Part shown: piece after piece, positions 20,685 through 22,218 of the stretch
How the letters are laid out: every line of letters begins with the position of its first letter
Numbering within the stretch: the first letter of the stretch is position 1
Source: Roseivirga echinicomitans
GTDB taxonomy: Bacteria > Bacteroidota > Bacteroidia > Cytophagales > Cyclobacteriaceae
Direction of reading: 5' to 3'
NCBI RefSeq assembly: GCF_001592935.1
Contig: NZ_LRDB01000023.1
Location: forward strand, 124,001-188,000
DNA: 64,000 nucleotides
Translations under genes and position numbers: made by a program
The notes under the pieces: model-generated
What the model was told of the DNA's origin: nothing
The model's input: only the letters and a program-made list of their open reading frames with translations
Database searches by the model: none

Positions 20685-20692
20685 TAACGAAT

Positions 20693-20771
20693 CTGAGCAA
20701 ATGTTTACTGTGTTATACGGACAGAGTCCTAAAGCCCATAGTAAGTCACAGGTTCGGAGAACCTGCGACAG
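20693..20771. repeat. Direct repeat copy 1 (left of the Fic cassette)
   Basis: A 79-bp sequence starting CTGAGCAAATGTTTACTG and containing two hairpins: GGACAGAGTCC and the tight CAGGTTC-GGA-GAACCTG. A second copy in the same orientation lies at 22121-22218, after the Fic gene. The copies share long identical stretches (for example TTATACGGACAGAGTCCTA) with scattered differences. It begins 9 nt after the LytTR stop and may act as that gene's terminator. Confidence 0.75.
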
Positions 20772-20799: not shown

Positions 20800-20894
20800 T
20801 CGTATCATAATCGTTTATTTTCGTATCAAACCGTATCACACTCTTGAAGGTTAGATCGTATCATCATCGTATCAAATCGTATCAAATCGTATCA
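20800..20894. promoter_or_regulatory. Array of seven phased CGTATCA boxes upstream of fic
   Basis: Seven copies of TCGTATCA (one is CCGTATCA) start at 20800, 20821, 20831, 20856, 20867, 20877 and 20887. The spacings are 21, 10, 25, 11, 10 and 10 bp, so most boxes lie on the same face of the helix. The last box ends about 18 bp before a consensus TACCTTTG promoter element. This looks like a multi-site operator, with the HTH domain of the adjacent Fic protein the obvious candidate binder. It is too short-unit to be a CRISPR. Confidence 0.75.
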
Positions 20895-20912: not shown

Positions 20913-20920
20913 TACCTTTG
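20913..20920 (+). promoter_or_regulatory. Bacteroidota -7 promoter element for fic
   Basis: TACCTTTG matches TAnnTTTG exactly. Only four bases (AAAG) separate it from the GTG start codon, so the expected transcription start falls at or next to the start codon and the mRNA may be leaderless. The last CGTATCA box lies just upstream, at the expected -33 area. Confidence 0.55.
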
Positions 20921-20924
20921 AAAG

Positions 20925-21965
20925 GTGAAAACTCAAGTATATACCTTTCAAATCAGTCTAGATTGGCAGTTAATGGCATTAGTTAGTCAGATAGACCGAT
21001 TTGATGCTTCTTGGTCTTCAATTGAAAAGAAGGAAGGCCAAAGCCTAAAAGAACTAAAGTCCATTGCCACTATTCGTAGCGTTGGCGCATCTACAAGGAT
21101 TGAAGGATCTAAAATGACAGATGAAGAAGTAGATGTACTCTTGAAAAACATCGACATCTCTAAACTTTCAGATCGAGACTCACAAGAAGTAGCTGGCTAT
21201 TTTGAAGTATTAGACCTCATTAGCGAAGCTTATAGTGATATACCCATTACTGAAAATAGCATCAAAAACCTCCACAAGACCCTTCTGAAGTACAGTAAAA
21301 AAGATGTTTGGCACCGAGGTGATTACAAACAACTCAGCAATGCGGTAGAAGCCAATTTACCTGATGGCACCAAGCAAATTATTTTCAGAACAACGGAGCC
21401 TGGCATCCCAACCGAGGAGGCTATGACCGAGCTAATCACATGGTTCAAAAAGGATAAAGAAACTCATCCACTGGTAAAGTGTGCTTTGCTGGCTTATGAT
21501 TTTGTCAGTATCCACCCCTTTCAGGATGGCAATGGCCGTTTGAGCAGATTACTTTCCACATTGGCCTTAATGAAAAGTGGCTACCAATGGGTACAGTATA
21601 TAAGTCTAGAGCATGAAATTGAACACCAAAAAAACAAGTACTATCAAACGCTACGCTCTTGTCAGGCACAAAGGCCAGGAGAAGACGCAACGGCTTGGCT
21701 GCATTTCTTCTTTCAAGCTTTAATCAAAATACAAACTCAGTTGCTCAATAAACTGGAAAGGCAAGGGGTAATGGCGGAGCTTGCTCCAAAAGAAAAGGCC
21801 ATACTTACCTTTATTGGGGAGCATCCCGGCTGTAAATCAGGCGAAATTGCCGAAAAACTGGATATCCCTAACCCAACAGTTAAAAGACTCTTAGCCCAAA
21901 TGGTAAAAGCCAATTTGGTAGAGAAGCATGGCGCTGGGGCTGGGACTAATTACTCTATTCTATAA
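20925..21965 (+). CDS. Fic-domain protein with C-terminal winged helix (class II AMPylator-like)
   Basis: A 346-aa Fic protein. Fic enzymes usually transfer AMP from ATP onto Ser, Thr or Tyr of a target protein. The complete catalytic motif HPFQDGNGRLSR is at residues 197-208 (His197). An inhibitory helix with the S-x-x-x-E-G motif (Ser56, Glu60, Gly61) precedes the Fic core, which marks the autoinhibited class II type. Residues about 275-346 form a winged helix (KEKAILTFIGEHPGCKSGEI, NPTVKRLLAQMVKANLVEK), so the protein can probably bind DNA. Start is a GTG at 20925. The upstream phased boxes suggest autoregulation. No antitoxin gene is adjacent. Flanking direct repeats suggest the unit moved or was duplicated around. 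Confidence 0.9.
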   Translation: MKTQVYTFQISLDWQLMALVSQIDRFDASWSSIEKKEGQSLKELKSIATIRSVGASTRIEGSKMTDEEVDVLLKNIDISKLSDRDSQEVAGYFEVLDLISEAYSDIPITENSIKNLHKTLLKYSKKDVWHRGDYKQLSNAVEANLPDGTKQIIFRTTEPGIPTEEAMTELITWFKKDKETHPLVKCALLAYDFVSIHPFQDGNGRLSRLLSTLALMKSGYQWVQYISLEHEIEHQKNKYYQTLRSCQAQRPGEDATAWLHFFFQALIKIQTQLLNKLERQGVMAELAPKEKAILTFIGEHPGCKSGEIAEKLDIPNPTVKRLLAQMVKANLVEKHGAGAGTNYSIL

Positions 21966-22093: not shown

Positions 22094-22120
22094 CTGTTCT
22101 GTACGGCAGACTAACGGTTT

Positions 22121-22218
22121 CTGAGCAAAGGGTTACGGTATTATACGGACAGAGTCCTAGAAATCATAGTGAGTCACAGGTTCTGCCAAAGGCAGATAAA
22201 TCGGAGAACCTGCGAGAG
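22121..22218. repeat. Direct repeat copy 2 (right of the Fic cassette)
   Basis: A 98-bp copy of the element at 20693-20771. It differs mainly by a 19-nt insertion (22184-22202) exactly in the loop of the GGTTC/GAACC hairpin; the insertion itself contains a TGCC-AAA-GGCA hairpin. A partial echo, GACAGATAAATCAGAGAG, follows at 22226-22243. It lies between the Fic gene and the convergent membrane protein gene and may act as a terminator. Confidence 0.7.

What the first reader, a model, noticed from the sequence alone, without database searches (positions are those of the whole stretch)
20800..20894. Seven helically phased CGTATCA boxes upstream of a Fic-HTH gene
The boxes are spaced 10 or 11 bp and near-multiples of it, so proteins bound to them would sit on the same face of DNA and could form a cooperative filament. 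The boxes abut a consensus TACCTTTG promoter element. The encoded protein has a C-terminal winged helix, which gives an obvious candidate binder. I know of no described operator of this sequence for Fic proteins, so this may be a new autoregulated AMPylation switch. Sequence and spacing are seen; binding and function are inferred.
Basis: partly seen in the sequence, partly recalled or inferred. Interest (0 to 1): 0.72.

Follow-up and report, generated by a model that had tools for sequence, protein, structure and literature searches.

The report
Paired four-box operators controlling Fic genes
In front of a gene for a predicted protein-tagging enzyme with a built-in DNA-reading domain lie two sets of four evenly spaced short DNA boxes; the same layout, with box letters that change along with the enzyme's DNA-reading helix, stands in front of most of the relatives compared here, which suggests that the enzyme switches its own gene in a way not described before.

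Summary
The seven CGTATCA boxes are real. With one degenerate box they form two quartets (20801-20838, 20857-20894), each spaced 11-10-10 bp, just upstream of the promoter of a class II Fic-wHTH gene (20925-21965). In 47 dereplicated upstream regions of relatives at >=50% identity (window included), 11-10-10 ranks first of 343 spacings; a quartet model hits 46 of 47, 26 of 27 in a second set, and 3 of 138 flank controls. More distant relatives have other box sequences, also 10-11 bp apart. Box sequence follows the recognition helix: Arg321 goes with C at box position 6 in 39 of 39 proteins, Lys321 with A in 21 of 30. In the own genome the quartet pattern (<=3 mismatches) hits only these two places. 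Best reading: an autorepressor operator read head to tail by the Fic protein's own winged helix. Against strict pairing: in 390 genomes, 14 of 31 pattern matches are not directly upstream of such a fic gene; a few are visible relics. Autorepression by a Fic-wHTH protein is known (CccR, inverted repeats); direct-repeat quartets appear to be a new variant. Binding, repression and AMPylation are untested.

The parts
20801..20838 (+). Upstream quartet: boxes at 20801-20807, 20812-20818 (degenerate CGTTTAT), 20822-20828, 20832-20838; spacing 11-10-10
   Evidence: Sequence; one of two genome-wide pattern matches; 44.8 bits to the quartet model (the window was in the training set)
20857..20894 (+). 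Downstream quartet: boxes at 20857-20863, 20868-20874, 20878-20884, 20888-20894; spacing 11-10-10
   Evidence: Sequence; genome-wide match with 0 mismatches; 47.1 bits; also found by Tandem Repeats Finder as a 10-bp, 3.9-copy array
20913..20920 (+). Putative -7 promoter element TACCTTTG (consensus TAnnTTTG)
   Evidence: Sequence; consensus from PMC7366714 (passage); in 8 of 47 regions the element lies exactly 56 bp after the start of the last quartet, as here
20925..21965 (+). fic gene (GTG start), 346 aa: N-terminal inhibitory motif STRIEG (56-61), Fic motif HPFQDGNGRLSR (197-208), C-terminal winged helix with recognition helix 316-328
   Evidence: Pfam Fic 59.1 bits and MarR_2 34.5 bits, both above cut-off; AlphaFold2 model pLDDT 87.7

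Best explanation
The two quartets are the operator of the fic gene itself. The C-terminal winged helix of the Fic protein reads one 7-bp box in one major groove; because boxes recur every helical turn in the same orientation, up to four protomers would line up head to tail on one face of each quartet. One quartet lies upstream and one beside or over the promoter, so enough Fic protein shuts its own promoter off, keeping a potentially toxic AMP-transferase scarce until it is titrated, destroyed or released. Shown here: the quartets, their conservation and spacing, their fixed place relative to start and -7 element, their uniqueness in the genome, and the coupling of box letters to recognition-helix residues. 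Inferred: binding, repression rather than activation, cooperativity, AMPylation, and the biological trigger.
For: Spacing 11-10-10 ranks 1st of 343 in 47 regions, mean 32.3 against 27.4 for the next and a median of 20.7. Shuffle test (at most 5 of 100 shuffles reach the observed value): quartet 40 of 47, against 10 of 177 flank segments; 10/11-bp triplet in the <50% group 40 of 46, against 5 of 177. Second set of named genomes: quartet 23 of 27, triplet in distant members 28 of 49, controls 1 of 64 and 2 of 64. Quartet model: 46 of 47 training, 26 of 27 second set, 3 of 138 flank controls. Distant Fic genes with other C-termini: triplet 0 of 23, quartet 1 of 23. Coupling: partial correlation of box distance with recognition-helix distance, Fic-domain distance removed, 0.63, 0 of 2000 permutations; best 12-residue windows start at 310-315 (0.67), best within residues 1-280 is 0.19. 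R321 with box C6 39 of 39; K321 with A6 21 of 30; the R321 rule held 14 of 14 in the second set. Only two genome matches, both here. No neighbour gene family shared by more than 4 of 21 loci, overlapping frames of fic aside. -7 element inside the last quartet in 18 of 47 regions and 38-70 bp after its start in 14.
Against: No binding or expression data. 14 of 31 pattern matches in 390 genomes of the order are not directly upstream of a fic gene of this clade. 7 of 47 group-A and 4 of 27 second-set regions miss the 5-of-100 quartet criterion, 21 of 49 distant named members miss the triplet criterion. Lys321 also goes with C6 in 9 of 30. On the tree, R321 and box-6 changes coincide on 3 branches (P 0.0016) but E285 ranks above R321; P317 and box 4-5 coincide on 3 (P 0.0005) but S344 ranks above P317. 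Two quartets 54-56 bp apart are not on exactly the same face.
Confidence: 0.8

Rival explanations
1. The quartets are bound by another protein (a host regulator or a neighbour's product) that controls fic from outside.
For: Binding by the Fic protein is not shown. Quartets exist in some genomes without a fic gene of this clade.
Against: Box letters follow the fic recognition helix beyond Fic-domain relatedness; no neighbour is shared by more than 4 of 21 loci; only two sites in the own genome, so no wider regulon at <=3 mismatches.
Confidence: 0.1
2. The array is a slippage-made tandem repeat without function.
For: Near-perfect 10-bp units in the second quartet; L098 and L231 show long simple arrays.
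Against: The irregular 11-10-10 pattern, present twice about 54-56 bp apart in 24 of the 30 two-quartet regions, recurs across divergent flanks, with fixed offsets to the -7 element; flank controls lack it.
Confidence: 0.03
3. The protein binds the quartets but activates, or does both depending on its state.
For: The upstream quartet lies where activators can sit; the sign of regulation was not measured.
Against: In 18 of 47 regions the -7 element lies inside the last quartet, a place that suits repression; the one studied Fic-wHTH autoregulator known to me, CccR, represses (PMC9755527, passages).
Confidence: 0.12
4. The quartets serve mainly as a docking site that sets the enzyme's activity (DNA-gated AMPylation), with transcription control secondary.
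For: CbFic2 of Coxiella burnetii is reported to change between AMPylation and deAMPylation on DNA binding (PMC10628234, passages); a single-gene locus without a shared antitoxin-like neighbour.
Against: No activity data; CbFic2 was studied with random DNA; the quartets keep close to the promoter in this clade.
Confidence: 0.15

Closest known systems
CccR, class II Fic-wHTH autorepressor (PMC9755527; passages read)
   Same: Fic domain with N-terminal inhibitory motif plus C-terminal HTH; the protein represses its own promoter by binding a footprinted operator near the promoter
   Different: Operator there is two inverted 10-bp AGATAATCAT copies 26 bp apart, bound by a dimer; here four direct 7-bp boxes at 11-10-10 bp, usually twice; no sign of secretion looked for or seen
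CbFic2 (PMC10628234; passages; PDB 8cil)
   Same: Same domain order; second-ranked fold match; DNA binding shown through the HTH domain
   Different: Assayed with random DNA; no operator described in the passages seen; about 19% identity over the fold match
SoFic anti-phage Fic proteins (PADLOC SoFic; PMC12249575, abstract and passages; PDB 3eqx)
   Same: PADLOC SoFic model matches residues 15-337, E 1.7e-49; similar fold
   Different: NCBIfam SoFic equivalog 60.9 bits against a cut-off of 550; Sofic has a small downstream antitoxin gene AS1, whereas one search lists no + strand ORF of 60 aa or more between fic and 23645 (shorter ones not searched)
PhoB/OmpR-type tandem direct-repeat operators (recalled, no call)
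   Same: 7-bp direct repeats one helical turn apart read head to tail by winged helices
   Different: Response regulators activated by phosphorylation; other protein family

Membership tests
Class II Fic AMP-transferase | Active-site motif HPFx[D/E]GN[G/K]RxxR | tested here: met
   HPFQDGNGRLSR, residues 197-208; motif core as in the abstract of PMC2686095, the longer form recalled
Class II Fic AMP-transferase | N-terminal inhibitory motif [S/T]xxxE[G/N] | tested here: met
   S56-T-R-I-E60-G61, invariant S56, E60, G61 in a 35-sequence alignment; motif form recalled, compare SARIEG of CccR
Class II Fic AMP-transferase | AMPylation activity | not testable with these tools
   Needs an enzyme assay
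CccR-type Fic-wHTH autorepressor | C-terminal winged helix | tested here: met
   MarR_2 34.5 bits, cut-off 27; helices 288-299, 305-312, 316-328 and wing strands
CccR-type Fic-wHTH autorepressor | Inverted-repeat operator | tested here: not met
   No CGTATCA on the minus strand in the region. In 47 regions 4885 direct against 1545 inverted 7-mer pairs; flanks 2539 and 1905 in 88 segments
CccR-type Fic-wHTH autorepressor | Protein binds and represses its own promoter | not testable with these tools
   Coupling of boxes and recognition helix is indirect support
SoFic anti-phage defence | SoFic equivalog model above cut-off | tested here: not met
   60.9 bits against 550; the PADLOC model does match, E 1.7e-49
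SoFic anti-phage defence | Protection against phage | not testable with these tools
   Needs plaque assays

The most novel reading that the evidence does not exclude
Each quartet is an assembly platform: four Fic-wHTH protomers stack head to tail on one face of the DNA and are held in an inactive or reverse-acting state, so that the operator DNA itself plays the antitoxin for a one-gene toxin. Loss of the assembly (for instance when a phage disturbs the chromosome) would free active enzyme and its promoter at once. The family would be a natural library of co-varying helix and box pairs across several phyla.
Probability: 0.15. Interest if true: 0.85.

Novelty: new variant of a known kind. Interest (0 to 1): 0.66.

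Why it matters
Fic-HTH fusions have been known since at least 2009, with the suggestion that the HTH may regulate fic (PMC2686095, passages), but in the ten paper searches made here (open-licence PMC only) I saw a defined operator only for CccR. If right, this gives a concrete operator for a whole branch of these proteins, names residues (321, 317) that set box letters, and makes two open questions testable: what keeps antitoxin-less Fic enzymes in check, and whether DNA binding sets their activity.

Tried and rejected
One continuous helically phased filament: rejected, because the 25-bp step breaks the phase and relatives show discrete quartets. A wider regulon: no other quartet in the own genome at <=3 mismatches. 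Inverted-repeat operator: not met. Neighbour-encoded regulator: no broadly shared neighbour. Phage or plasmid origin: phage records match at 33% identity or less, plasmid records at 42% or less; their upstream regions were not examined. A single self-similarity score for all members: quartets are confined to the >=50% group (only 7 of 46 distant regions pass the quartet test), so a triplet test was added for the others after seeing the data. RNA-level reading: not pursued, since in the window the boxes lie upstream of the likely transcript.

Rows dropped before counts: of 109 homologous loci 101 had at least 120 bases upstream and were not identical, 93 were kept after removing regions over 80% alike. 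Of 80 named loci, 1 too short and 3 duplicates were dropped. For the coupling test L013 (no wHTH) was left out; for the tree L175, L180, L189 (cut genes) and L188 (no quartet) as well. The quartet model was trained on the 47 regions it scores. The box of L050 was set by hand in register; without L050 and L048 the best-window value falls from 0.67 to 0.57 and the best within 1-280 rises from 0.19 to 0.24. Three of 138 flank controls hit the quartet model; I did not trace them. The printout was cut in the middle.

Full report
Observation. Seven exact CGTATCA boxes lie on the + strand between 20801 and 20894. Adding a degenerate box at 20812, they form two quartets of identical layout: box, 4 bp, box, 3 bp, box, 3 bp, box (start-to-start 11-10-10), 56 bp apart. 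TACCTTTG follows at 20913-20920, 18 bp after the last box and 4 bp before the GTG start of the gene. With up to 3 mismatches a degenerate quartet pattern hits the 4.18-Mb genome only at these two places.

The gene. The 346-aa product has a Fic domain (Pfam 59.1 bits) and a C-terminal MarR-like winged helix (34.5 bits), the full active-site motif HPFQDGNGRLSR and the inhibitory motif STRIEG. The AlphaFold2 model (35 sequences, pLDDT 87.7, pTM 0.77) puts the recognition helix at 316-328; nearest solved folds are other Fic proteins, among them 4rgl, CbFic2 (8cil) and SoFic (3eqx). PADLOC's SoFic model matches at E 1.7e-49, NCBI's SoFic equivalog stays far below cut-off (60.9 against 550 bits). 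The gene is accessory: of 18 other genomes of the genus searched, one has a close homologue (G007, 83%).

Conservation. Searches of 59, 390, 395 and 395 genomes (overlapping draws) and loci taken gave 109 homologous loci, 93 upstream regions after dereplication: 47 from proteins at 50% identity or more (group A, window included) and 46 below (group B). Scoring self-similarity for all 343 spacing triples of 8-14 bp, 11-10-10 comes first in group A (32.3; next 27.4; median 20.7). A position model finds 76 quartets in 46 of the 47; 30 regions have two, of which 24 are 52-56 bp apart. The model was trained on these regions; on a second set of named genomes it hits 26 of 27, on flank segments 3 of 138. 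Against dinucleotide shuffles (at most 5 of 100 reaching the observed value) the quartet passes in 40 of 47 group A regions, 7 of 46 group B regions and 10 of 177 flanks; a 10/11-bp triplet passes in 36 of 47, 40 of 46 and 5 of 177. In the second set: quartet 23 of 27, triplet 18 of 27 and, for distant members including Proteobacteria and a cyanobacterium, 28 of 49; controls 1 of 64 and 2 of 64. Lag counts peak at 10-11, 20-21, 31 and 54-55 bp in group A, at 10-11, 22 and 54 bp in group B; the controls are flat. Distant Fic genes (about 24-36% identity) with other C-termini do not show it: triplet 0 of 23, quartet 1 of 23.

Box sequences differ by clade: CGTATCA, CGGATAT, CGTATAT, CGAACCA in group A, GGATAA- or AGATAA-type, AATGGGTGTA and TTGGCTACAA types in group B. 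L050 (63% identical) is a natural experiment: its helix reads ISRPIVIREL where the window has IPNPTVKRLL, and its repeat is TTGTAACATC.

Coupling of boxes and helix. In 46 group A proteins box distance correlates with recognition-helix distance after Fic-domain distance is removed (0.63; whole wHTH 0.50; 0 of 2000 permutations each). Of all 12-residue windows the best start at 310-315 (0.67); the best within 1-280 reaches 0.19; without L050 and L048, 0.57 and 0.24. R321 goes with CA at box positions 6-7 in 25 of 25 and 14 of 14 in the second set; over both sets R321 with C6 is 39 of 39, K321 with A6 21 of 30 and with C6 9 of 30. On a Fic-domain tree of 69 proteins, 3 of 6 box-6 changes fall on branches where residue 321 changes (P 0.0016), 3 of 6 box-4/5 changes where residue 317 changes (P 0.0005); in L176 both revert together. 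These columns rank second, after E285 and S344 respectively, so the tree test alone is suggestive, not decisive. Permutations that ignore the tree are too lenient.

Place. TAnnTTTG (consensus as in PMC7366714, passage) lies within 80 bp of the start in 33 of 47 regions against 1 of 230 flank segments; a promoter is expected there in any case, so the telling part is the offset from the last quartet: +13 in 14, +23 in 4 and +56 in 8 regions, the last group containing close relatives. So the quartet covers the -7 element or ends near where the -33 region should be. This fits repression. In 21 loci no neighbouring gene family is shared by more than 4, overlapping frames of fic aside.

Evidence against a strict pair. 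The CGTATCA-type quartet pattern was sought in 390 genomes of the order: 31 matches in 23 genomes, reversed control 1 match. 17 matches (11 genomes) lie directly upstream of a fic of this clade, two of those genes being cut by contig ends. 14 do not. Of these, L248 keeps the last codons of fic and L251 its first codons; L254 is the window's own chromosomal site in a sister species, array 87% identical, with another gene in place of fic; L245 and L249 are followed, and L261 is preceded, by a different, shorter Fic gene; L258 lies about 1 kb upstream of an intact fic; the other seven (L246, L247, L256, L259, L262, L266, L273) have no fic trace that tblastn at 0.01 finds. Relics of lost genes are the simplest account, shown for two or three and guessed for the rest. 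Conversely, 10 of the 21 group A genomes of that draw have no pattern match beside fic, as expected where boxes differ.

Mechanism. Shown: layout, conservation, place, helix-box coupling. Inferred: one winged helix per box, four protomers in line, repression of the own promoter. The 54-56 bp between quartets is about 5.2 turns, so a continuous filament over both is unlikely. What relieves repression, and whether DNA binding alters AMPylation, is open; CbFic2 is a precedent for the latter (passages).

Novelty. CccR shows that a Fic-wHTH protein can repress its own gene, through inverted 10-bp repeats 26 bp apart (passages). Head-to-tail quartets, usually paired, with co-varying specificity, I found in no paper listed by the ten searches made (named under Why it matters), which cover open-licence PMC only. 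I therefore file it as a new variant of a known kind.

Noticed in passing
L020-L029, L033, L034 (upstream of distant Fic genes): About 370-aa Fic-wHTH genes in related genomes often carry GCGGAGAAT-like and TTCACCGCA-like repeats upstream, a mixed direct and inverted layout; seen by eye in the printout, not counted.
   Followed up: no
L030, L031, L036: Upstream of about 320-aa Fic-HTH genes a palindrome (GATAGTATCATATGATACTATC in L030, near-identical in the others) runs into the start codon: a third operator type.
   Followed up: no
window 20692-20755 and 22120-22183: Two copies (86% identical) of a dispersed repeat bracket the fic module; the genome search reports 14 matches to this element, some short.
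   Followed up: partly
L254 (1501-1594): Sister species at the same site (response regulator gene 91% identical upstream) has the array, with one box fewer in the second quartet, followed by a putative lipoprotein gene instead of fic.
   Followed up: partly
L245, L249, L261; L142: A shorter Fic gene (about 270 aa) without recognised wHTH lies beside quartets; in G019 (L142) one search also lists such a Fic match just upstream of the array. Whether it is controlled by the quartets is unknown.
   Followed up: partly
L248: Behind a quartet and a 3' scrap of fic lie ORFs that look like a nucleotidyltransferase and HepT-like pair (a toxin-antitoxin type; named by eye, no family search).
   Followed up: no
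L271 (2048-2158): Another species of the genus (G013) keeps only a 37-residue 3' piece of fic, 78% identical.
   Followed up: partly
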